From NCBI RefSeq assembly GCF_030409055.1, contig NZ_CP116619.1, positions 5,324,109 through 5,388,108 of the forward strand: DNA of 64,000 nt, read 5' to 3'. This document shows, piece by piece, positions 1 to 10,705 of this stretch (the first letter of the stretch is position 1; each line of letters opens with the position of its first letter). The notes under the pieces were generated by a model, which was not told where the DNA came from, did not search any database, and worked only from the letters and a program-made list of their open reading frames with translations. Both the position numbers and the translations under genes were made by a program. The DNA is from Trichocoleus desertorum NBK24 (GTDB lineage: Bacteria > Cyanobacteriota > Cyanobacteriia > FACHB-46).

Positions 1-123
1 TCCGAGGATAAAGGCGTTGCTTACTCTGGCGGAGTACAAGTCGATGCGTCAGATAACTTGTTTGTTGGTGTGGGGTATAACTCGGTTCGAGGAGTAAACG
101 GGCAAGTTGGACTTAGATTTTAG
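1..123 (+). CDS. C-terminus of an outer-membrane beta-barrel protein (5' end outside window)
   Basis: The first 40 codons are open in frame 1 and end at TAG (121-123). The peptide alternates polar and hydrophobic residues (for example NLFVGVGYNS) and ends in GLRF. A terminal Phe after an amphipathic strand is the usual signal read by the BAM outer-membrane insertion machinery. I therefore read it as the last two strands of an outer-membrane barrel or autotransporter-like protein. The rest lies to the left of the window, so neither family nor size can be given. Confidence 0.6.
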   Translation, partial: SEDKGVAYSGGVQVDASDNLFVGVGYNSVRGVNGQVGLRF

Positions 124-179
124 GCTAGCCCGATCGCGACCTAGTTGAAAGTATTGGGTAGTTTGGGCCATCGAGCCTG

Positions 180-362
180 TTAGTCACGAGCGTGAGACTT
201 TAGCTTCTGAGAGCAGGGCAAATGTAAACTGGCTTCTAACTCTGCACGCTTCACGAAATGATTGAAGTCACTAGCAGCCTTGGCCTTTTGTTCCAAGGGT
301 ACCCGGTCATACCACAACCAAAACAATGTTCTGGGGCTGATAGCGTCAGGTACATTAGCCAT
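180..362 (-). CDS. Small hypothetical protein, 60 aa
   Basis: An ORF of 60 codons starting MANVPDAISP. I chose the ATG at 362 over the upstream ATG at 383 because an AGGA Shine-Dalgarno-like stretch sits about 7 nt before it. The product is soluble, with an aromatic patch (LFWLWYDRVP) followed by a charged helical stretch (EQKAKAASDF). No signal peptide, membrane helix or recognised motif. It stands alone between the barrel gene and the Mut7-C gene. The function is unknown and coding status is likely rather than certain. Confidence 0.5.
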   Translation of the reverse strand: MANVPDAISPRTLFWLWYDRVPLEQKAKAASDFNHFVKRAELEASLHLPCSQKLKSHARD

Positions 363-512
363 AGTCTCATCCTGCATCAACAATATTGGTAAGCGTGACG
401 CAAAATGTTCGTTCTGACTATCGATAAGACACGGAGTTGAAGATATTGGAGGGATGTCAACCTCGTGTTTTTACCGATTGATCGATAGAGCTTAAAGTTC
501 TCCGGTCAATTT

Positions 513-1265
513 TTATTGATGATGCTTATCGTGCAGCACGCGATCGATAAATTGCTGGATGCGTTCGTGGTGTGCCCCTTTCCAGTAGATCTGGTCACAA
601 GCTGGACAAATGGAAAATTCCTCGTAGTGTTTCCGAGTCTGAGACGGTAAGCGATCGCAAACGCTTTCTTTAGCAACAGGCTGAAGTGAACCATTACAAC
701 GCAGACAACGCTGTAGCGGGGTAATTTCACCAAATAGGTCAAAGTGTTGTAGCACTTCTAGCACCTGTGTTTCCGGGTTTGACTCACGGACACAGTAGCC
801 GTAGGTAACGATGCTACGCTTCAGTACCCCTCGATCTCTAGTTAGTAAAATCCGCTTGGTTTGACTGGTGAGGTCAGCCAGCTCTTGATCTTGGTAATCA
901 TTTTGATAGAGAGCATCAAATCCGAGCAAGCGTAGGTAGGTAGCGAGTTTACCCAGATGAACATCGAGAATAAAACAAACGTAAGTTAAGGGTTGGGGTT
1001 GAACCTGAGAAAGTAAGCTAATGTCGAGGCTTCTGAACTTGGGATAGACACTGATGCGATCGCCATTTTGCACTAAATAAGAGAAGTCTACTGATTCTCC
1101 GTTGACCAGAATGAGAGCCACTTCTGGATGAGGTACGCCTAACGCTTCAATCGAATCCTTGATGGCAGCAGTCTCTTTTAAAACATGAACAAAATTAGCT
1201 TGCCTTTTGTGAAGAGGTAAGAAGTCGTTGAGTTCTGCATAAAACCGAAAGTAAGCTCGCTCCAT
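513..1265 (-). CDS. Ub-Mut7-C: ubiquitin-like domain plus Mut7-C PIN-type RNase domain and zinc ribbon
   Basis: A 250-aa protein in two parts. Residues 1-82 resemble the ThiS/ubiquitin-like fold (RFYAELNDFL... ending near GDRISVYP). Residues about 95-245 are a Mut7-C domain: the first acidic residue in FILDVHLGKLATYLR (D101), then ILLTRDRG (142-146), then two CxxC pairs (C187/C190 and C220/C223) forming a zinc ribbon. Mut7-C is a PIN-like nuclease fold named after the C-terminus of the animal exonuclease Mut-7, so RNA cleavage is the expected activity, though its bacterial substrate is not known to me. The C-terminal GG of a conjugating ubiquitin-like protein is absent, so the N-terminal domain is probably a binding module. 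The gene is monocistronic. Confidence 0.8.
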   Translation of the reverse strand: MERAYFRFYAELNDFLPLHKRQANFVHVLKETAAIKDSIEALGVPHPEVALILVNGESVDFSYLVQNGDRISVYPKFRSLDISLLSQVQPQPLTYVCFILDVHLGKLATYLRLLGFDALYQNDYQDQELADLTSQTKRILLTRDRGVLKRSIVTYGYCVRESNPETQVLEVLQHFDLFGEITPLQRCLRCNGSLQPVAKESVCDRLPSQTRKHYEEFSICPACDQIYWKGAHHERIQQFIDRVLHDKHHQ

Positions 1266-1343
1266 TGCGATGGAATTACCTCTACTAGTGAGTAGTGGAA
1301 TAAAAGGGGCTAAAACTCGGCCGATGGGATGAGTACTGACCCA

Positions 1344-1451
1344 CTACTTCTTCCAAGGGAGCTTGGTTCCCATTTCTGTGTAAGCAGAAAAAACTAAGTA
1401 CAACGCTAAAACACCAACACTAGCGAGAAAAATGATTAGATCGCTATTCAT
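1344..1451 (-). CDS. Tiny one-helix membrane protein, 35 aa, unidentified
   Basis: An ATG at 1451 preceded by GAGG at 9 nt spacing opens a 35-codon ORF ending at TAG (1344-1346). The N-terminus is MNSDLIIFLASVGVLALYLV, a single hydrophobic helix of about 20 residues, followed by a polar tail ending KLPWKK. Size and topology match the low-mass subunits of photosystems, cytochrome b6f or NDH-1, but I cannot match it to PsbN, PsbT, PsbX, PetG, PetM, PsaM or others that I know by sequence. It could also be a small stress or transporter-associated peptide. Missed by default length cut-offs. Confidence 0.5.
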   Translation of the reverse strand: MNSDLIIFLASVGVLALYLVFSAYTEMGTKLPWKK

Positions 1452-1550
1452 AGGCTTAGACCTCGAACTCACTCCTTGTTGATCATGGCAGAGTTGGGGT
1501 TCAGTCGTGAACTGCTCTACTCTACTGATGACTTTTAACAGAGCCTCAAA

Positions 1551-1600
1551 CTAAAAGCAGCGATCAGAGCTAAAAATATTGCTGCGATCGCTGCTTTTAG
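1551..1600. terminator. Perfect 15-bp inverted repeat between two tiny ORFs
   Basis: Left arm 1551-1565 (CTAAAAGCAGCGATC) and right arm 1586-1600 are exact reverse complements around a 20-nt loop. The right arm includes an HIP1 core. It sits just 20 nt downstream of the stop of the 36-aa ORF and 100 nt upstream of the 35-aa ORF, both leftward. It is best read as a terminator or transcript-stabilising hairpin. There is no strong T-tract, so intrinsic termination is not certain. Confidence 0.5.
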
Positions 1601-1619
1601 TTGATTTGATAGAGAGCGA

Positions 1620-1730
1620 TTAGAAGTTCATGAGTCCCAAATAAGAAGCCGAGGAAATGGCAATAATGGTTAGAACTCCAAAAATGATACTAAGACCGAA
1701 TTGAAAAGCAGGTTTTTTTCCAGCGCTCAT
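1620..1730 (-). CDS. Tiny one-helix membrane protein, 36 aa, unidentified
   Basis: ATG at 1730, stop TAA at 1620-1622. The product starts MSAGKKPAFQFG and then has one hydrophobic helix (SIIFGVLTIIAISSAS), ending LGLMNF. A basic N-terminus followed by one helix suggests an N-in thylakoid or plasma-membrane peptide of the kind common among photosystem and NDH accessory subunits. It is superficially like PsaX in size and layout but without convincing identity. Ribosome-binding site is weak (AAGTGGTG). Coding status rests on length, topology and intergenic location. Confidence 0.45.
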   Translation of the reverse strand: MSAGKKPAFQFGLSIIFGVLTIIAISSASYLGLMNF

Positions 1731-1831
1731 AATTGACACCACTTAAACTAATTTATTTAGTCATGGTGTCTGTGCCCTTGAAAAACTACATCCTGCTTCA
1801 GGACTAAGTAAGAAGGTACAAAAATTGGAGC

Positions 1832-1859
1832 AAATTGAGTGAGTTCACCGACTCAATTT
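1832..1859. other. 9-bp stem-loop in spacer upstream of the 36-aa ORF
   Basis: AAATTGAGT (1832-1840) pairs with ACTCAATTT (1851-1859) across a 10-nt loop. On the plus strand a T follows, but no gene ends immediately to the left in that direction. Between the leftward 36-aa ORF and the rightward gene at 1993 it could be a leader hairpin or an operator. Function not determinable. Confidence 0.3.
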
Positions 1860-1992
1860 TGGGTCGTTCCTCAAGAGGGATACTCAGAGGTGTTTAATTT
1901 TCCCTTTGGCAGAAGAGGAGAGATAGGGGCGATCGCTACACTAAGAAATTATTAATCGTCCCTTTACCCCTCCTGTAAATTGGTTTCGTATC

Positions 1993-2259
1993 ATGAAATA
2001 CCTAGGGCAAACTATTGAGCTAATGCAAAAAGATGGTGGTTGGGTGAGCATGTGGTACCACCATATTTGTACGATCCAAATTGGAACTTTTCCAACCGCT
2101 AATGCTGCTTGGGATGCTGCTATTGAGCTAATTCAACGAGATCTTGCAGTTCGAGCCTTGTTAGAAGTCATTGATGATTGGACTAGCGACAGCTTAATCA
2201 GTTGCCAAGAATACTCGTTTATGGAAGATTCACTCGTTCAGTTTGTTGTCTCGGTTTAA
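1993..2259 (+). CDS. Hypothetical protein, 88 aa
   Basis: An 88-codon ORF starting MKYLGQTIEL from ATG 1993, with CCTCCTG-like pyrimidine rather than a purine-rich site before it, so initiation may be weak. The sequence is soluble, aromatic-rich near the N-terminus (WVSMWYHH) and helical in the middle (ANAAWDAAIELIQRDLAV). I recognise no family. Its stop is only 30 nt from the convergent end of the GH57 gene. Confidence 0.5.
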   Translation: MKYLGQTIELMQKDGGWVSMWYHHICTIQIGTFPTANAAWDAAIELIQRDLAVRALLEVIDDWTSDSLISCQEYSFMEDSLVQFVVSV

Positions 2260-2289
2260 CAAGCTGTCAATGTTGTACCGAATCATCTA

Positions 2290-3795
2290 TCAAGTCTGAG
2301 CTAGCAACGATGCTTCGCCTCGGCGATATAACTCGCGAGCGTAATCTGTCCAAGTGCCTTGGCCCCAGTAACGGAAACAGCTAGTTTGTAACAGCAAGTT
2401 GTAAAGTAACGCTTCTTGATAGTCCGAGCGCTGCGTCACCGAACTATCTTGCTCTACTAGGCGATCGTATTTTTCGTGAAATAATGCACTGAGTTTTCTC
2501 ATGGGGTCTAAAACGTTTTCGTATCCGTTGACCCAACTTAAGTGATTCGTCCATGAAGCCCCGTCCATGTGGAATTGGTGATCAGTCGCTTTAATCTCGG
2601 CGATCGCGTTTTCTACTGCTTCAGGTGTGGCCTTGTCTGGATCAACTCGTTGCCAAATTTTGTGCTGGCTGACAGCTTGGCAAATAGGATAGTCTTCGGG
2701 ATTAGCACCTGCAGCTTCGATGAGTTCTAAGTATTCAGTTCCATTTAAGGCAACTACACCAGCTCTCCCTCCACCCTGTTCTCGTACCTCATGGCAGGCT
2801 TTAATGAAAGCTTGTGGGAACTCATTCATCATCACGCCGCCATTTTCTCCATCAGCAATTTGCGTGACGAGGGAAGGAACTGTGACATTGCCAATTTGTT
2901 GTTTGCTGCGTCCTTTAGCCTCATAATAAGGCTGCATTTGGCCCACTAGTTTGGTGTCCGAGCCTTGAGTTTTGATCAGGGCCGTAATGCTGATCGTTTC
3001 TCCATGACAATTTCGGGCGACCAAGCGATTAGGGATATATTTCTGATCGTGCTGTAGTCCAGAGCCATCTATGTTTTCGACCGAATGTTCTTGCACCATT
3101 AGCCAACGGTAGCCACATTCTTTGAGTGCTTTGATGTATTCATACAGCGTATCTGGGTGATTGGGTAAATGCATTTCTGGGGGTGAGAAGCCCTTCACCC
3201 GACGTAGAGCTTCGTAGCCAAAGATAGCTGCAAAGTGCTGTTGCCAAGCTTGAATGTGCAGCTTAATGTCTGGAATCGGAGTGGAGGGAATCACAGCATG
3301 ACCCCACATGGTTCCTAGCCATTCTACATAGGGCTGATATTGAGGGTCACAAGCAAGGCGTTTCAGGTTATTCAAAACATCCTCGCGTCCGAGCTGGTGC
3401 AACCCCCACAACAAATTACCTGAATAATCGAGCATTATGCGTGGATTGCATCCCTCTGCAACGAGTTGAGGGATAAACTCTCCCATACGGCTGTAGCACC
3501 AAGTAAAAGGATCAGCATTATGGTTGTCTCCTTCCCCAGAATGCTCAAACATATATTGCAGGTTGCTGATCAGAGCACCATTTGCTCCTGCTGGAATCGT
3601 GGGCTGGTGCATATGCAAAGCACAAGCAAAGCCCGCTGTAATGTCTGATAGCTGAAGATTTGTCTGAGGTAAGAAAACAGGTTGATTGTGGTTCACCACT
3701 GTATTGATCTCTGCCTCCCAACCACAGATGTTGGGCAGACCTGATCTCATTTTTGTCAGGGTGGGGAGAGGGGAAGCCGAAATTTGTGTAGACAC
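2290..3795 (-). CDS. Glycoside hydrolase family 57-like protein
   Basis: A 501-aa protein starting at GTG 3795 (GAAGGAAG ribosome-binding site 5 nt upstream). Residues 57-66 (CALHMHQPTI) carry the HxHQP signature of the (beta/alpha)7 GH57 barrel, and the length fits the family. GH57 enzymes include amylopullulanases, 4-alpha-glucanotransferases and branching enzymes acting on alpha-glucans, so a role in glycogen or maltodextrin turnover in the cytoplasm is plausible. I did not pin down the catalytic Glu and Asp with certainty. No signal peptide. Divergent from the HEVGH membrane-protein gene at 4011. Confidence 0.75.
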   Translation of the reverse strand: MSTQISASPLPTLTKMRSGLPNICGWEAEINTVVNHNQPVFLPQTNLQLSDITAGFACALHMHQPTIPAGANGALISNLQYMFEHSGEGDNHNADPFTWCYSRMGEFIPQLVAEGCNPRIMLDYSGNLLWGLHQLGREDVLNNLKRLACDPQYQPYVEWLGTMWGHAVIPSTPIPDIKLHIQAWQQHFAAIFGYEALRRVKGFSPPEMHLPNHPDTLYEYIKALKECGYRWLMVQEHSVENIDGSGLQHDQKYIPNRLVARNCHGETISITALIKTQGSDTKLVGQMQPYYEAKGRSKQQIGNVTVPSLVTQIADGENGGVMMNEFPQAFIKACHEVREQGGGRAGVVALNGTEYLELIEAAGANPEDYPICQAVSQHKIWQRVDPDKATPEAVENAIAEIKATDHQFHMDGASWTNHLSWVNGYENVLDPMRKLSALFHEKYDRLVEQDSSVTQRSDYQEALLYNLLLQTSCFRYWGQGTWTDYARELYRRGEASLLAQT

Positions 3796-4010
3796 AGAAC
3801 TTCCTTCATGCTGATTTTGCGATCGCTTTTAATTGTGACTCATTCCAGTCGCAATCGTCTTTTCGGGGTTGGTTTGTTCGTATAGTCTGCTGATGCAAAA
3901 CCGATGTACAAAATCAACTCAAACTGGGAATTCTACATTTCATAGCCAATACTGGTAGTGTAATTAACACGCTCAGTTATTGATTTCACTAGTCATGCTA
4001 GGAGTCAGCC

Positions 4011-5138
4011 TTGGAACTCGTGCAATTAGCCAAGCAGGGTGACGGTAGGGCGATCGCAATCTTATTAAATCGAGCTTTTAAGAAACACGGAATTGCTGTC
4101 AAAGTAAATCTTAAGGGTAGTTGCTTGCAAGTGTTACTAGAGGCGACTCCAGCGCCAGCGCCATTAGCTGCCATGACCTTGATGCAGCAGGTGATGTTGC
4201 AGTTACAACCAGAATCCTTAGAGCGAGTGGAAGTATATAGTCGGGAAATAGGGGCAAAAAGCTTTAACTGGCAGCAAGAACTACGACTTCAGCAGCCTCA
4301 GCGCTTCCCTACAGAAAGCGGGGCTGTAACTGGGGCGAGGTCAGCTTTCCACCCTAAACGCAGTCAAATCTTTGCTAGCTTACCTGCTAAACCTCAAGCC
4401 CAAGCAGTGACGAATGAGGGCTGGGGAGCAGTTTTGACAGGGTTGGGATTAGCAGTGATCTTATTTATCCTCAGTCCCTTGAAGTTGTTGTTTCGGGGAT
4501 TTTTGGTCATGGTGCATGAGGTAGGGCATGCTTTAACCCACTGGCTGTTTGGTCGTCCTGCTATTCCGATGGTTGATTTTGCTTTCGGCGGTGGCATTAC
4601 CCTAAATTTTGAGCAATCCTGGCTGATTTTAGGGCTGATTTACTCAGCGATCGCCTATCTGATCTGGCTCTGTCGGGTTTACCCCCGGCTGCAAGGCGTT
4701 CTCGTTTTATTAAGTGGGCTGTATAGCTTTTGTTTGTTCACCAATTGGAATCTCATTTTGTCAACCTTTATGGGGCATGGCATGGAGATTTTAGCTATTT
4801 TTGTTTGTCTCTATTTATCAATTAGTGGTTACTTCTGTCGGATGGGTGGCGATCGCACCATTTATGCCATGCTGGGCTTCTTTACTTTGTTTAGTGATCT
4901 TCAATTCTCATGGCAACTACTCTACGATCTGGATTTTCAATCTTGGTACGATGAGGGCAAAGGTGGGGTGATCGATAGCGACTTGGTAATCCTAGCTGGT
5001 GACTACTTCAACACTGACCTCTCAACTATTGTCGGGTTTCTGTTGATGGGCTGCATCACAGCTCCTATTCTTGCCTTTTTGTTGTTTCGGTATGGGTCTT
5101 GGTTACATGTTGGCGTAAGCAAGCTGTTAGTTACGTGA
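4011..5138 (+). CDS. Membrane M50-like metallopeptidase family protein with HEVGH motif
   Basis: A 375-aa protein starting at TTG 4011, supported by AGGAG 6 nt upstream. Residues 1-90 form a soluble domain, 130-140 a linker, and from about 139 on there are six or so hydrophobic helices. HEVGH at 169-173 lies inside a membrane helix segment (FLVMVHEVGHALTHW), which is the zinc-site layout of site-2-type intramembrane proteases. The usual downstream Asp motif (NPDG-like) is not evident. The gap fits either a divergent peptidase or a family member that only uses the fold. The cytosolic N-terminal domain may gate substrate access. Stands alone in the plus orientation. Confidence 0.6.
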   Translation: MELVQLAKQGDGRAIAILLNRAFKKHGIAVKVNLKGSCLQVLLEATPAPAPLAAMTLMQQVMLQLQPESLERVEVYSREIGAKSFNWQQELRLQQPQRFPTESGAVTGARSAFHPKRSQIFASLPAKPQAQAVTNEGWGAVLTGLGLAVILFILSPLKLLFRGFLVMVHEVGHALTHWLFGRPAIPMVDFAFGGGITLNFEQSWLILGLIYSAIAYLIWLCRVYPRLQGVLVLLSGLYSFCLFTNWNLILSTFMGHGMEILAIFVCLYLSISGYFCRMGGDRTIYAMLGFFTLFSDLQFSWQLLYDLDFQSWYDEGKGGVIDSDLVILAGDYFNTDLSTIVGFLLMGCITAPILAFLLFRYGSWLHVGVSKLLVT

Positions 5139-5285
5139 TCACTGAGCCATTAGACTCAGCAAACAAAAACCGATTCTGCCTTGCTTGGTTAGCTTTAGCT
5201 GTTAGAGCTTAGGTAGGGAAAACCTCACCTTGAGATAGTGCGGATGTGCAAAGATCAAAGAAGTGTTTATCCGAGTCACTAGCCA

Positions 5286-5708
5286 ATGTCTGTGTATCCT
5301 TTACCGCTAGAAAACAGCATTGAAAAACTGCGTGAAGTCCGGGCTGCTTTGCTCCGCTTACACAAAGCTCTTTTAGAGTTTGAGCGGGTGAATTATGAGC
5401 AGTTTTTTGGTCGCATTCAGACTAAAGGTGAGTATTTTCAGCTCGTTGTCAACCATGACTGGTTTAGTTGGCTGCGTCCCATTTCTCAATTCATTGTGCA
5501 AATTGACGAAGCGTTGAGCGCAAAAGAACCCATTACGGTCGGTGCCGCGAATGAGTTGCTCAATCAAGCTCGCCAAATGCTGCGGCCTGCACAGGATGGA
5601 ACTACGCTAGAAAAACGATACTACCGTGCGATTCAACAGGAGCCAGAGATCGCTTTACTGCACGCAGATGTATCGCAACTACTGGCAACGCAACCTCAGT
5701 CTAAGTAG
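5286..5708 (+). CDS. Conserved-type hypothetical protein, 140 aa
   Basis: An ORF starting MSVYPLPLEN. All-alpha prediction: three or four amphipathic helices (residues about 8-40, 55-80, 88-102, 110-135) with a loop rich in aromatic residues (VNHDWFSWLRP). No signal peptide, no membrane segment and no catalytic motif. The helical bundle design suggests a small adaptor or nucleoid-type protein, but that is inference. The gene is 148 nt after the HEVGH gene on the same strand and may not share its transcript. An IS element lies 150 nt downstream. Confidence 0.6.
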   Translation: MSVYPLPLENSIEKLREVRAALLRLHKALLEFERVNYEQFFGRIQTKGEYFQLVVNHDWFSWLRPISQFIVQIDEALSAKEPITVGAANELLNQARQMLRPAQDGTTLEKRYYRAIQQEPEIALLHADVSQLLATQPQSK

Positions 5709-5854
5709 TGTTTTGGTTTGGCAGGGGGCTGGCTGCGTACAGATTAGCTGTATACAATCGCTACCTACAATTGCTACCTACAAGAGAGCGTAGGGGATAC
5801 ATCCTTCCTAGATCTAAGAAGGGCGATCGCCTACGCTAGGTAGATCAATCAGGA

Positions 5855-7190
5855 AGCGTGTAAAAATAAGTTGAGCAATTAAGCAGCTTTTCTGGGGCTG
5901 ATTTGATAGTTCCAATCTCCATGAAACCGTTTGCGCCGAATCGCAATCGCGTTAAACTCTTCATCCGTTACTTTAATGCCCGTTTTGTATCGCTTTTCAT
6001 CGAGTTGAGCATGAACTTCTAAGCCTTGCTCTGTCGTAGTGCTTCCAATCAGGTTGATGATGACTTGCAAACTCGTTAAAGGTCTACCTCGCCAGTTTTG
6101 CGTGATATGGCAGAACAGTCGATGCTCAATCTTGTTCCATTTGCTCGTACCTGGTGGGAAATGGCACAGGTGAACCGTTAAACCCATCTCATCAGCGAAC
6201 TCTTGGAGTTTCAACTTCCACAAGCGATTGCGGTAGCCATTGCTGCCCCCACAGTCTGCCGTGATTAATAAATGCTTACTACGCGGATAAAGCAGTTGCC
6301 CCATGTCTAACCACCAGTGACGAATGGACTCAACGGCAAATTCAGCCGTGTCATGGTCAATGCCGACGCTCACCCAACCCTGGTTCAAAGCCAAGTCATA
6401 GATGCCATAGGGAATTGCTTTGCCCAATGTCTTGTCAGCAAAGTCATGGACATTGACCTCCACAGGCTCTCCCTTTGGTTCCCACTCTCGCCCAGGATGA
6501 TGGAAATTGCCCACCAGTTCCTTGTTCTTGGTATCGATTGAAATCACAGGGCGATGCAACTGTTGAAACTGCTCAACCGTGGTTGCGATGTGCTCAAACT
6601 GGGCATCACGGTCGGGATGATCTTTGCCTTCGCGAGTTTTGCGATTGCTTTGCAAGCTGTAGTCCATTGACTTGAGCAGGGTATAAACGGTCTTAGCGCT
6701 GACTTGATGTCCCTGTCTTTGAAGTTCCTGTGCTAATTTGTTCACACTTTTACAGGTCCATCGCAGTGCCGAAGTCGGGTCTCCTCGAGTCGTCGGTTCA
6801 ACCAGGTCATCGAGACGCTTGATTAATGTCTCATCGCGCTCTTCGACTCGCTTACGTCCTCCTCCTGGTTTACGAATCGAACCTGTGACAATCGTTTCCT
6901 CAGTCGCTTCTAGAGTTCTTTGTCCCGATGTAATCGTATTGCGGCTCAGTCCTGTTGCCTTTGATAGTGCACTCACACCACCATGCCCCAAACTTCGTGC
7001 TTCAATTGCTGCCCAGATGCGTCGTGTTTGCTCATTCAAATAAGGAGCAAATGCCTCGTACTTGAAGCGAATTTGTTCAACAACATCCGCTGCGATCATG
7101 CTGCTCATAATAACCCTACAGTTCAAGCTTAGTTGCTCTGTTGAGGTAGGTCATGAAGTCAGGAAAAAGCTCAACTTATTTTTACAAGCT
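5855..7190 (-). mobile_element. ISAzo13-type insertion sequence, about 1.33 kb
   Basis: Imperfect terminal inverted repeats of 22 bp (one mismatch) bound the element: 5855-5876 and 7169-7190, with an 18-bp perfect core TGTAAAAATAAGTTGAGC at 5859-5876 and its complement at 7169-7186. It holds a single transposase gene. A 3-bp AGC occurs on both sides (5855-5857 and 7187-7189), which would be a target duplication if the true tips are nearer the 18-bp core; I cannot decide between the two readings. The right end is 28 nt downstream of the carbonic anhydrase stop. Confidence 0.8.
5879..7108 (-). CDS. ISAzo13-family transposase
   Basis: A 409-aa protein. I prefer the ATG at 7108 (MSSMIAADVV) over the ATG at 7126, because AGGG lies 5 nt before it. 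The N-terminus (about 30-75) holds a helix-turn-helix (GVSALSKATGLSRNTI). The body has DDE-type segments (VISIDTKNKE, LITADCGGSN, and a KWNKIEHRLF stretch late in the protein) characteristic of ISAzo13 transposases, which cut and rejoin the IS ends. Open along its full length, so likely functional. Confidence 0.85.
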   Translation of the reverse strand: MSSMIAADVVEQIRFKYEAFAPYLNEQTRRIWAAIEARSLGHGGVSALSKATGLSRNTITSGQRTLEATEETIVTGSIRKPGGGRKRVEERDETLIKRLDDLVEPTTRGDPTSALRWTCKSVNKLAQELQRQGHQVSAKTVYTLLKSMDYSLQSNRKTREGKDHPDRDAQFEHIATTVEQFQQLHRPVISIDTKNKELVGNFHHPGREWEPKGEPVEVNVHDFADKTLGKAIPYGIYDLALNQGWVSVGIDHDTAEFAVESIRHWWLDMGQLLYPRSKHLLITADCGGSNGYRNRLWKLKLQEFADEMGLTVHLCHFPPGTSKWNKIEHRLFCHITQNWRGRPLTSLQVIINLIGSTTTEQGLEVHAQLDEKRYKTGIKVTDEEFNAIAIRRKRFHGDWNYQISPRKAA

Positions 7191-7218
7191 GCCTCAGTGT
7201 GACTTATCGACCAGATTT

Positions 7219-7959
7219 CTAAGTGACAAGAGTGATAGCTCCTGTATCGAGGTCATAGCGCCCTCCGACAATCTTTAACTTGCGCTCTAAAACCAGTTGC
7301 GCCAACACACTAGAATTTTGCTTTAACTGCTCTACTTGATATTGCACATTCGCCGTTACGGCCTGATCAATCTGCTGAGCGACATCAGCCGACTTAGTTT
7401 TGATGGTGGCGATCGCAGGTTTAATCGCTTTGACAAACGTACCAATATGGCCTGGAAGCGCTTCTCCTTGAATCGCCGCCGTCACAGCACCGCAGCGTTC
7501 GTGCCCGACTACCATAATCAGACGAGTCCCTAAGAGAGCCGCCGCATATTCCAGGCTGCCCAAGACTTCAGGCGTCACGACATTGCCAGCGACCCGCACA
7601 TCAAATAAATCGCCAATGCCTTGATCAAAAATAATTTCTCCGGGCACTCGTGAGTCGGCACAAGTCAGTAAAGTTGCAAAAGGGTGCTGTGATGTTGCGA
7701 CTGCCTGTAAATCTTTGGATGTTTCATGCGGGTACTGCCGTTTTTGCTGTACAAATCGCTGATTGCCATCCAATAGTTTTTGTAATGCAGCCTCTGGACT
7801 CACCGCATCAAAACTTTGAGTGCCAGGTGTTGGCTGATCGGCATAAGCAGGTTCAGCGTATTTAAAGCTAGCGGCGGTCGCTGCGACCAAGCCAACTCCG
7901 CCGACTCCAAATAACTTCAATAACTCTCTGCGACCCGTCCACTGACTCATTTGTTTCAT
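7219..7959 (-). CDS. Tat-exported beta-carbonic anhydrase
   Basis: I chose the ATG at 7959 (MKQMSQW), because GAGG sits 6 nt before it; a GTG at 7971 is possible. With that start, residues 1-40 are a twin-arginine signal: TGRRELLKLF followed by a hydrophobic stretch and a PAYADQ cleavage site. The mature part carries the full beta-class zinc site: C100-A-D102-S-R104, H153 and C156. The enzyme interconverts CO2 and bicarbonate, here outside the plasma membrane. It is the third gene of the leftward sbtA-sbtB operon (57 nt after sbtB), so it probably supplies or recaptures substrate for the bicarbonate transporter. Confidence 0.85.
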   Translation of the reverse strand: MKQMSQWTGRRELLKLFGVGGVGLVAATAASFKYAEPAYADQPTPGTQSFDAVSPEAALQKLLDGNQRFVQQKRQYPHETSKDLQAVATSQHPFATLLTCADSRVPGEIIFDQGIGDLFDVRVAGNVVTPEVLGSLEYAAALLGTRLIMVVGHERCGAVTAAIQGEALPGHIGTFVKAIKPAIATIKTKSADVAQQIDQAVTANVQYQVEQLKQNSSVLAQLVLERKLKIVGGRYDLDTGAITLVT

Positions 7960-8028
7960 TAGGTTCCTCACCTTCTCTCACTAACGACTCGTTCTGTTTG
8001 GCGATCGCTCTGCTATAAAATTGTTCTC

Positions 8029-8343
8029 CTATAGAGAAGACACACATTTCATCGAGCCAATCTCCATGACATCGGAAATAAAGCAAGATCCCCCAAACTT
8101 ATTTAGAATGGGGCGCACAATTTCCACAACAGATTTAAGAATTTCAGGTGAGCAGAAGGCGATGACATAAGCGTTGTCTAGCATTGTCACGGCAGAATCA
8201 TCAAACACGCTGCCTCGCACTCCTTTGCCTGCCACATTCCGAATTACCGTATAGCTAGAAACACCGCCTCGTTCTAAACCACTGATAATTTTGGCTAACT
8301 CTACAGAGTCCGAAAAAATTTCAATTTTCTTTACCACATGCAT
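8029..8343 (-). CDS. sbtB: SbtB: PII-like regulator of the SbtA bicarbonate transporter
   Basis: 104 aa from the ATG at 8343, chosen over an ATG at 8367 because GGAG lies 8 nt upstream and because it leaves only 4 nt between the sbtA stop and this gene. The PII fold is visible as an early beta strand (VVKKIEIFSDS), then LERGGVSSYTVIRNVAGKG leading into the T-loop (GVRGSVFDDS), and a second strand and helix (EIVRPILNKFGG). SbtB trimers bind adenine nucleotides and plug SbtA from the cytosol. The long C-terminal CGPxGC redox tail of some SbtB proteins is missing here. Confidence 0.8.
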   Translation of the reverse strand: MHVVKKIEIFSDSVELAKIISGLERGGVSSYTVIRNVAGKGVRGSVFDDSAVTMLDNAYVIAFCSPEILKSVVEIVRPILNKFGGSCFISDVMEIGSMKCVSSL

Positions 8344-8347
8344 AATC

Positions 8348-9319
8348 TTATCTCCATAGCAAATCAATCCCGTACAGATACAAAGGAATGCCGAAGATGA
8401 TGTTAAAGGGGAATGTCACAGCCAAAGCCGTAGAGATATACAAACTCGGATTAGCTTCTGGAACCGTTAACCTCATGGCGGCTGGCACAGCGATGTAGGA
8501 GGCACTGGCGCACAACACAGAAAACAAGAGGGCGTTTCCTGGAGGCATTCCAATCAGCTTGGCAATCAGCAGCCCAATTCCTGCATTGACTATTGGGATC
8601 AGTATGGCAAATGAGATCAGAAATGGGCCAGTTTTCTCCAAATCTTTAATTCTTTTAGCGGCGACTAAACCCATATCTAGCAAGAAGAAGGTAAGGACGC
8701 CATAAAACATATCTTGTGTAAAGGGAGATAGAACTTTCCAGCCATGCTCTCCTGTTAAAAAGCCAATAATGAGGCTACCAACTAGCAGAAAAACCGAACC
8801 ATTCAGAAATGCTTCTCGCAAAACTTCAGGCCAGGAAAAATCACGCTCGTTTTGCTCTTGAGTAAAGAGATTGACCAAGATCAATCCCACAATAATCGCT
8901 GGAGACTCCATTAAGGCTAGGGCTGCGACCATGTAGCCATCGAAGTCAATGCCCAACTGTTGTAGGAAAGAGCTAGCTGTAATAAAGGTGACGGCACTAA
9001 TTGAGCCATAAGTCGCAGCGATCGCGGCAGCATTATAGGCATCAAGCCTGATCTTCAGGATAAAGAACGTGTAGATAGGCACTAAGCACGCCATCACGAT
9101 TGCTACCAGCATCGTCAGGAATACTTCCTGATTCAAGCCACTTTTGGCAAGCTCTACTCCTCCTTTAAAGCCGATAGCAAATAGCAAGTACAGTGAAAAC
9201 AGCTTCGGAATCGGTGGAGGAATCTCCAAGTCTGATTTCACAAAAACCGCTGTCATCCCCAAAAAGAAAAACAGCACTGGTGGATTCAAGATGTTAGACA
9301 TAATCAGGCTTACGTCCAT
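8348..9319 (-). CDS. sbtA: SbtA: sodium-dependent bicarbonate transporter
   Basis: 323 aa from the ATG at 9319, with a strong GGAGGGG site 6 nt upstream; an earlier start at 9349 lacks one. About ten hydrophobic helices arranged as two inverted halves. Family segments include PPIPKLFSLYLLFAIGFKGG, a helix-crossover region (YGSISAVTFITA) and ASYIAVPAAMR near the C-terminus. SbtA imports bicarbonate driven by the Na+ gradient across the plasma membrane and is induced by carbon limitation. It is about 50 residues shorter than the Synechocystis protein, mostly because the central cytosolic loop is short. First gene of sbtA-sbtB-carbonic anhydrase. Confidence 0.9.
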   Translation of the reverse strand: MDVSLIMSNILNPPVLFFFLGMTAVFVKSDLEIPPPIPKLFSLYLLFAIGFKGGVELAKSGLNQEVFLTMLVAIVMACLVPIYTFFILKIRLDAYNAAAIAATYGSISAVTFITASSFLQQLGIDFDGYMVAALALMESPAIIVGLILVNLFTQEQNERDFSWPEVLREAFLNGSVFLLVGSLIIGFLTGEHGWKVLSPFTQDMFYGVLTFFLLDMGLVAAKRIKDLEKTGPFLISFAILIPIVNAGIGLLIAKLIGMPPGNALLFSVLCASASYIAVPAAMRLTVPEANPSLYISTALAVTFPFNIIFGIPLYLYGIDLLWR

Positions 9320-9568
9320 ATCCACCCCTCCACATTGCTTAAATAGCAATCTAATACAGTTTGCTTCATGCTAGGCCGTGAAATATTCAGTACTCAGTCA
9401 TCAATAGTCTTGTAGATATACTGTATGGCGAGTCAGGAAAGTTACATTTCTATGTAATCTATCGCTACTTCTGCATGACACGTTAAAGCTCGATGGCCCC
9501 AGGTTTAAGCTACTTTTAGAGTCAAGATCATCTTACAAAAGTACATAACTTAGAGCGATCGCAGCTTT

Positions 9569-10705
9569 CTATTCCACCGCTACTGGGTCTACAACGATGC
9601 CCATAAACAAAATGGCTCCAGTCTGCTGATCTCGAATTGCACAGAAGAACGGGCGATCGATGGTTAAGGTTGGGGGTATTCCTCTTTCCATTTCAATGGC
9701 AGTTACAGCTGCTGCTTCCGCCCCTGCTTCGTTGACCTCAAAAAAAGTTTTGTGAGTAATTTGGCTAATAGCTGCACTACCAGAGCAAAGTTGTGAAAAA
9801 TTAGCTGTTTGCTCAAATGCTTGCTTCATGCCCAAGTTTATGAGTGCTTGCTTCAGTTCGGGTTTGGCTTCATACGTTAGTTGAAATTTAGGTATCACAA
9901 GGTTGATCAGACGTTGGGGCATGGACTTTGACGGAAACTGACTGAGCCATTTGGCAGCAGTTCCTAACCCCAAGCTTTGATAAAAACTATTCACATCAGC
10001 TAGAGACGGAGGCAAAAAGACATCAAGACTGAGGCGTTTATCTCCAAATGGCACGCTGACGGCTGCAAAATCTTTACCTTGATAACAGCAGTATTCATTC
10101 AGTTGCCTCATCATTAAAACTTGCTTCTCGCTGCCATCTAGAAGCGTGAATAGGGCTGGTTCGGTCTGGTCTGGATCAAAACAATCAGTCCAAGCACCTT
10201 TGAAGTAGATGGCGTTGAGCAGAACTAGAATTGTAGCTGGGCTAAGTCGCTGCACAATTTGCTGAATCTTGCCACAGGTTTTATCACTCGCCCATTGATT
10301 AATGGTTGCTGCTGCATCAGGGCTACTAAAGTCTAGGTGACTAACTTCTGCTTGATAGAACTCTTGCACTCGCTGCAAAAAGTCAGCTCGAAATTGCAAA
10401 TTTGGTTTGGCCCAGAGCGAGTTAGCGATCGCCACTTGCACATCAGTTAATTTTTCTAGCAGCTTAATCAACTGAGCATTAGCTTGATTCACCTCCTGCA
10501 CACTCATGTTTTGAATGCCCAACGCGATCGCCATTTCTGCTTGGGTTTGACCCACAGCCCCGTTGTAGAGCATAGAAAGCGCGATCGAAATGCTGAGGGG
10601 AGAAATAAAAATATTTTGGTTCGGCTGTTGCTTGATTAATTCCGCAAAAAGCTTGAAACCGAATCGATTACTGGCTGCGATCAATTGATCAGTCGCGGTT
10701 TTCAT
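9569..10705 (-). CDS. Serpin (serine protease inhibitor)
   Basis: 378 aa with the complete serpin fold: NIFISPLSISIALSMLYNGA near the N-terminus, LVLLNAIYFKGAWTDCFDP in the shutter region, and a reactive-centre hinge EAGAEAAAV at 326-334. Aligned on the IPP after the loop, P1 is R341 and P1' G342, predicting inhibition of trypsin-like proteases by the suicide mechanism. The small-residue hinge indicates an inhibitory rather than a non-inhibitory serpin. No signal peptide, so it acts in the cytoplasm or is released by another route. Monocistronic, leftward. Confidence 0.9.
   Translation of the reverse strand: MKTATDQLIAASNRFGFKLFAELIKQQPNQNIFISPLSISIALSMLYNGAVGQTQAEMAIALGIQNMSVQEVNQANAQLIKLLEKLTDVQVAIANSLWAKPNLQFRADFLQRVQEFYQAEVSHLDFSSPDAAATINQWASDKTCGKIQQIVQRLSPATILVLLNAIYFKGAWTDCFDPDQTEPALFTLLDGSEKQVLMMRQLNEYCCYQGKDFAAVSVPFGDKRLSLDVFLPPSLADVNSFYQSLGLGTAAKWLSQFPSKSMPQRLINLVIPKFQLTYEAKPELKQALINLGMKQAFEQTANFSQLCSGSAAISQITHKTFFEVNEAGAEAAAVTAIEMERGIPPTLTIDRPFFCAIRDQQTGAILFMGIVVDPVAVE

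What the first reader, a model, noticed from the sequence alone, without database searches (positions are those of the whole stretch)
7219..9319. sbtA-sbtB operon that ends in a Tat-exported beta-carbonic anhydrase
SbtA, SbtB and a periplasm-directed carbonic anhydrase are in one tight unit (4 nt and 57 nt gaps). An exported carbonic anhydrase in the transporter operon suggests that CO2 from outside is converted to bicarbonate at the membrane just where SbtA takes it up. Most described SbtA/B pairs stand without such a partner.
Basis: partly seen in the sequence, partly recalled or inferred. Interest (0 to 1): 0.55.

Follow-up and report, generated by a model that had tools for sequence, protein, structure and literature searches.

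The report
Bicarbonate pump with exported carbonic anhydrase
A cyanobacterial gene trio joins a second-type bicarbonate pump, its regulator and a carbonic anhydrase made for export, an arrangement shared by many cyanobacteria, which suggests that this poorly understood exported enzyme feeds the pump.

Summary
In detail: three minus-strand genes, 8348-9319, 8029-8343 and 7219-7959/7971, with no terminator-like site between them. The names need correction. The transporter is not canonical SbtA: it is about 27% identical to the organism's own canonical SbtA, which lies with its own SbtB elsewhere. It is the divergent SbtA2 type, and the PII-like protein is SbtB2-like, without the redox C-terminus. 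The trio is conserved. In 80 named SbtA2 loci, 79 have SbtB2 and 48 also the carbonic anhydrase (CA); in 388 class genomes, 65 of 150 listed SbtA2 places have it 318-760 bp downstream. Of 40 canonical SbtA1 regions two held a CA, one of them part of a neighbouring SbtA2 trio. A twin-arginine signal is visible in all 79 different linked CA genes. These CAs form their own clade, apart from EcaB of the genus Synechocystis, whose clade sits repeatedly inside ndhF3-ecaB-ndhD3-cupA operons, also in this genome. So two exported CA paralogues are tied to two carbon-uptake systems. Best explanation: the CA supplies bicarbonate to SbtA2 at the plasma membrane. Periplasm versus thylakoid lumen, activity and co-transcription are untested.

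The parts
8348..9319 (-). sbtA2-type Na+/bicarbonate transporter family gene (Sbt_1, 323 aa)
   Evidence: Pfam E 4.7e-129; 27% to own canonical SbtA; low-confidence model matches SbtA structures first
9325..9331 (-). ribosome-binding site GGAGGGG of sbtA2
   Evidence: read in sequence
8029..8343 (-). sbtB2-like PII-like regulator gene (104 aa, no CGPxGC C-terminus)
   Evidence: Pfam P-II E 2.4e-10; nearest solved chain 5d4n; 0 of 79 relatives carry CGxxGC
7219..7959 (-). beta-carbonic anhydrase gene (246 aa from ATG 7959; 250 aa if GTG 7971)
   Evidence: Pfam Pro_CA E 1.1e-40; start supported by relatives
7840..7959 (-). twin-arginine (Tat-type) signal peptide region up to AYA-DQ
   Evidence: motif by eye; RR invariant in 19 aligned CAs; seen in 79 of 79 different linked genes
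7492..7662 (-). catalytic segment CADSR ... HERC (zinc ligands C104, H157, C160; D106/R108)
   Evidence: invariant columns; role of the residues recalled from beta-CA family knowledge
5879..7126 (-). ISAzo13-family transposase just downstream (boundary, not part of the unit)
   Evidence: NCBIfam NF033519 610.7 bits; 6 identical copies in genome

Best explanation
This is a conserved sbtA2-sbtB2-CA operon. SbtA2 imports bicarbonate at the plasma membrane, the PII-like SbtB2 regulates it from the cytoplasm, and a soluble beta-carbonic anhydrase carried out by Tat acts on the outer face of the membrane, turning CO2 (from outside or leaking from the cell) into bicarbonate where SbtA2 takes it up. 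Shown: gene order, identities, export-type signal, conservation, a separate CA clade. Inferred: co-transcription, periplasmic location, direction of the reaction, functional coupling.
For: Trio order in 48 of 80 named SbtA2 loci and 65 of 150 listed places, in 12 family labels. Control: 2 of 40 canonical SbtA1 regions held a CA, one of them belonging to an SbtA2 trio; 65/150 against 1/40 gives Fisher p 1.3e-7 (rows are related, so only a guide). Twin-Arg signal in 79 of 79 different linked CA genes, 0 of 2 CcaA-type. Linked CAs form one clade, 100/93, 74 linked of 77 rows. The own genome keeps a second exported CA in its ndhF3-ecaB-ndhD3-cupA operon, so the two are probably not interchangeable spares. 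SbtA2 bicarbonate uptake and binding of SbtB2 are reported by a review passage (PMC13249358).
Against: 30 of 76 named SbtA2 loci with at least 1 kb downstream lack the CA, so SbtA2 does not need it; 16 fetched unlinked SbtA2 regions had no exported CA and one had a CcaA-type, signal-less CA in that position. Tat signals do not separate periplasm from lumen, and the signal is shared by all EcaB-like CAs, linked or not. An added external alpha-CA had no discernible effect in S. elongatus (abstract of PMC11360081). EcaB has been reported both inactive and active (passage in PMC9865033). No expression data.
Confidence: 0.6

Rival explanations
1. The exported CA goes to the thylakoid lumen, like most of Synechocystis EcaB, and serves NDH-1 CO2 uptake or luminal chemistry; it shares the operon with sbtA2 only because both are needed at low CO2.
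For: EcaB, a paralogue, was reported mostly thylakoid-bound and tied to NDH-1(3/4) (passage in PMC11360081). In G020 the trio runs straight into ndhF3-ndhD3-cupA.
Against: The SbtA2-linked CAs are a different clade from EcaB, and this genome has an EcaB-clade gene inside its ndhF3/ndhD3/cupA operon already.
Confidence: 0.2
2. The CA sits in the periplasm but mainly recaptures CO2 that leaks out of the cell, or buffers periplasmic pH, rather than feeding outside CO2 to the pump.
For: Same anatomy; many trio carriers are Nostoc, Leptolyngbyaceae and Nodosilinea lineages that from general knowledge often live on land or in fresh water.
Against: Nothing here separates it from the main reading; the link to a bicarbonate importer fits both.
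Confidence: 0.12
3. The neighbourhood reflects shared inheritance or shared promoter use without functional partnership.
For: The trio is absent from about two fifths of assessable SbtA2 loci.
Against: Same order and short gaps in 12 family labels, strong contrast with SbtA1, and a single CA clade following SbtA2.
Confidence: 0.08

Closest known systems
SbtA2/SbtB2 bicarbonate uptake system (named in PMC13249358, SbtA2 subfamily in PMC9477826)
   Same: Divergent Sbt_1 transporter followed at once by a PII-like gene
   Different: Here an export-type beta-CA is the third gene; the passages read on SbtA2 do not mention one
Canonical SbtA1/SbtB (Slr1512/Slr1513 type)
   Same: Sbt_1 family, fold match to the SbtA structures, PII-like neighbour
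   Different: About 27% identity, shorter central loop, no CGPxGC C-terminus on the PII-like protein, CA partner
EcaB (Slr0051 type), Tat-type beta-CA
   Same: Beta-CA with twin-arginine signal, about 50% identity to the EcaB-clade paralogue of the same genome
   Different: Different clade; EcaB clade sits in ndhF3-ndhD3-cupA operons or alone; no cysteine for lipid attachment in the window protein's N-terminus
CPII, carboxysome-associated PII-like protein (5d4n; this name recalled)
   Same: Nearest solved structure to the window SbtB2 (E 2.6e-6)
   Different: From another bacterial group (recalled); ligand binding of SbtB2 not tested

Membership tests
Canonical SbtA (SbtA1) | High similarity to Slr1512, as the own-genome copy has | tested here: not met
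   27% to the own SbtA1 in a full alignment; E 9.5e-26 to Slr1512 chain 7cye
Canonical SbtB | C-terminal CGPxGC redox loop (not universal: lacking in Cyanobium 7001 per PMC10991534) | tested here: not met
   Window protein ends MKCVSSL; 0 of 79 SbtB2 relatives carry CGxxGC against 31 of 37 SbtB1-like ORFs
SbtA2/SbtB2 | Sbt_1 domain, divergent from SbtA1, PII-like gene adjacent | tested here: met
SbtA2/SbtB2 | Groups with the marine picocyanobacterial SbtA2 proteins | tested here: inconclusive
SbtA2/SbtB2 | Chloride-dependent, intermediate-affinity bicarbonate uptake | not testable with these tools
   reported in PMC13249358 (passage)
Beta-carbonic anhydrase | Pro_CA domain with CxDxR and HxxC zinc/catalytic residues | tested here: met
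Beta-carbonic anhydrase | CO2 hydration activity | not testable with these tools
   no assay
Tat substrate | Twin arginine, hydrophobic stretch, AxA cleavage site | tested here: met
   read by eye and by script; no signal-peptide predictor was available
Tat substrate | Actual export, and to which compartment | not testable with these tools
   needs localisation
EcaB orthologue | Falls in the clade of EcaB proteins of the genus Synechocystis | tested here: not met
   Three Synechocystis-genus proteins group with the NDH-linked clade 100/100; the window CA is in the other. Genus inferred from 95-97% identity of three genomes to a Slr1512 fragment

The most novel reading that the evidence does not exclude
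Cyanobacteria give each of several inducible carbon-uptake systems its own exported carbonic anhydrase: one paralogue clade is dedicated to SbtA2 at the plasma membrane and another, EcaB, to NDH-1(3) at the thylakoid, so that SbtA2-SbtB2-CA works as a CO2-capturing bicarbonate pump and explains the long-unassigned exported CA.
Probability: 0.35. Interest if true: 0.7.

Novelty: new variant of a known kind. Interest (0 to 1): 0.5.

Why it matters
A review states that the role of periplasmic EcaB-type CA is undefined (passage in PMC10096703). A conserved operon gives such an enzyme a named partner and a direct genetic test, and it adds a possible third component to SbtA2, a transporter being tried for carbon-uptake engineering in plants (title of Rourke 2026a in a reference list).

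Tried and rejected
Canonical SbtA reading: rejected. EcaB orthology of the window CA: rejected by tree. RbcR-type site (consensus from the review passage) upstream of sbtA2: 10 hits in the window against 7.9 expected, none in the 9320-9568 gap. Sigma-70 promoter scan of 7000-9700: none found, 3.8 expected, so uninformative; terminator-like hits only on the plus strand. Structure prediction: the CA model is poor (pLDDT 59) and was not used; the SbtA2 model is low (pLDDT 62.7) but its first five PDB matches are SbtA. The primary SbtA2 paper (PMC13187645) is not held, and the primary EcaB-NDH-1 paper was not among the listings; both are known only through review passages.

Rows dropped: one search used the 150 SbtA2 rows and the CA rows printed; both lists were cut, so 65 is a lower bound; some unlinked rows end at a contig end (e.g. 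G246 and G272, loci L020 and L033). In the tree, 96 of 101 different CAs were used (2 CcaA-type left out, 3 too short); three pieces (L102, L130, first piece of L009) had been dropped earlier as short, and L102 and L130 were read by eye. The 40 SbtA1 regions, 16 unlinked SbtA2 regions and 20 CA regions not linked are picks from longer lists, chosen mostly for rank and contig room, not random; one of the 20 (L169, G007) proved to be SbtA2-linked and one (L168, G020) holds a linked CA as well. One search used 23 of the SbtA2-linked CAs, partly hand-picked, partly random.

Full report
What is there. On the minus strand of window 7219-9319 lie three genes in a row: a 323-aa Sbt_1 transporter, a 104-aa PII-like protein and a beta-carbonic anhydrase (Pfam E 4.7e-129, 2.4e-10, 1.1e-40). 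The first gap is 4 nt. The second is 57 nt from GTG 7971, but relatives share the start at ATG 7959, which makes 69 nt and a 246-aa protein. No terminator-like site lies on the coding strand and the promoter scan was uninformative. The next gene downstream is an ISAzo13 transposase; the next upstream, past about 250 nt, is a serpin.

The transporter is not canonical SbtA. The genome (one contig, 5.46 Mb) holds two Sbt_1 genes. The other, at 3.13 Mb, codes for a 396-aa protein followed by a PII-like protein that ends in CGPDGC: the classical SbtA1/SbtB pair. The window transporter is 27% identical to it in a full alignment (30% and 23% in local pieces), lacks its long central loop, and has Tyr where SbtA1 has Asp in the SSSD motif (the Tyr is invariant in 12 SbtA2). 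A low-confidence model (pLDDT 62.7) still gives the SbtA structures as its first five PDB matches. It fits the SbtA2 subfamily named in PMC9477826 (passages) and PMC13249358 (passages), where SbtA2 is said to have high flux, a Km near 150 uM and chloride dependence, and to interact with an SbtB2 protein. The window PII-like protein lacks CGPxGC, as do all 79 of its named relatives, against 31 of 37 SbtB1-like ORFs that have it. A missing loop alone is not defining, because Cyanobium 7001 SbtB also lacks it (PMC10991534, passages).

The CA. Zinc and catalytic residues are intact (C104, D106, R108, H157, C160). The N-terminus has a twin arginine, an uncharged hydrophobic stretch and AYA before the mature part, and no cysteine for lipid attachment, whereas EcaB is said to have a putative lipid attachment site (passage in PMC11360081). 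No signal-peptide program was available; this is a motif reading. The same reading holds in 79 of 79 different SbtA2-linked CA genes: 76 of 77 by script, with two (L049, L137) whose printed segment starts at an earlier RR but contains the true one; the 77th, in G303, is split by a frameshift with the signal in its first piece; L102 and L130 were read by eye. It also holds in 14 of 14 unlinked, 7 of 7 NDH-linked and 1 of 1 SbtA1-linked CAs, and in 0 of 2 CcaA-type CAs. So the signal marks the whole EcaB-like group, not the trio alone.

Conservation. In 388 genomes of the class, 301 match the window transporter, counting weak SbtA1 matches. Of the 150 places printed (145 genomes), 65 have a window-type CA on the same strand 318-760 bp downstream, in 12 family labels (labels); both lists were cut, so this is a lower bound. 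In 80 named loci, 79 have SbtB2 at once downstream and 48 the CA within 1.5 kb; among the 76 with at least 1 kb downstream it is 46. Carriers include Nostoc, Calothrix, Fischerella, Scytonema, Nodosilinea and Leptolyngbyaceae; among those without it are Pseudanabaena, Acaryochloris and most Microcoleus. Against it: 16 fetched unlinked SbtA2 regions had no exported CA, and in G096 a CcaA-type CA without a signal follows a double PII-like gene. Control: of 40 SbtA1 regions, one (G064) has an EcaB-type CA just upstream and one (G120) contains a whole SbtA2 trio divergent from sbtA1-sbtB1. Fisher for 65/150 against 1/40 is p 1.3e-7; the rows are not independent and G120 was not counted.

A second exported CA with another partner. 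The genome has three beta-CAs: a CcaA-type, the window gene, and a Tat-type one lying between ndhF3 and an ndhD3-type gene, followed by a CO2-hydration protein gene of the CupA/CupB family (NCBIfam ndhF3_CO2, NDH_I_M, chpXY). Among 20 fetched CA regions not linked, four more show ndhF3-CA-ndhD3-cupA, G211 has the CA divergent from ndhF3, and G020 carries sbtB2-CA-ndhF3-ndhD3-cupA-CA in one run, with sbtA2 just before it. In the tree of 96 CAs the SbtA2-linked ones form one clade (74 of 77 rows, 100/93), five NDH-linked ones and the SbtA1-linked one another (100/100), and most free-standing ones a third, which also holds the two remaining NDH-neighbour CAs. Synechocystis-genus EcaB proteins fall in the NDH clade; in one such genome (G230) ecaB lies between genes that look like ndhF3 and ndhD3, in two it stands alone (no family scan of these neighbours). 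The genus was inferred from 95-97% identity of three of its five genomes to a Slr1512 fragment; Slr0051 itself was not obtained. This agrees with reports that EcaB works with NDH-1(3/4) (passages in PMC10096703 and PMC11360081).

Mechanism. Most likely SbtA2 imports bicarbonate, SbtB2 gates it, and the exported CA keeps CO2 and bicarbonate in rapid exchange at the outer face, so that CO2 becomes usable to SbtA2. Location, direction and coupling are inferred. The main rival is lumen targeting. An external alpha-CA added to S. elongatus had no discernible effect (abstract of PMC11360081), which warns against assuming a benefit, though that enzyme was of another class and the host another species.

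Novelty. The parts are known kinds; the trio with a dedicated CA clade is a new variant as far as I can tell. Searches for a description in print. Of the five papers listed with SbtA2 I read passages of four and none of these passages mentions a CA gene next to sbtA2. The primary SbtA2 paper (PMC13187645) is not held, so prior notice cannot be excluded.

Noticed in passing
window 5879-7126: ISAzo13-family transposase gene 92 nt past the CA stop codon; six identical full copies in the genome, so probably active recently.
   Followed up: partly
L146 6668-12251 (own genome C1:4586667-4592250): ndhF3 - Tat-type beta-CA - ndhD3 - CupA-type operon, downstream of nitrate/bicarbonate-type ABC transporter genes.
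   Followed up: yes
L168 (G020) 73-7048: Carbon-uptake supercluster: sbtB2 - CA - ndhF3 - ndhD3 - cupA - second exported CA, with sbtA2 just before.
   Followed up: partly
L155 (G096) 2739-5257: sbtA2 followed by one ORF with two PII-like domains (210 aa) and a CcaA-type CA without signal.
   Followed up: no
L199 (G064, Synechocystis-like genus): EcaB-type CA gene directly upstream of canonical sbtA1-sbtB1.
   Followed up: no
L009 (G303) from about 2918: The linked CA gene is split by a frameshift in this genome.
   Followed up: no
window 9569-10705: Serpin gene (Pfam E 5.4e-108), same strand, upstream of sbtA2.
   Followed up: no
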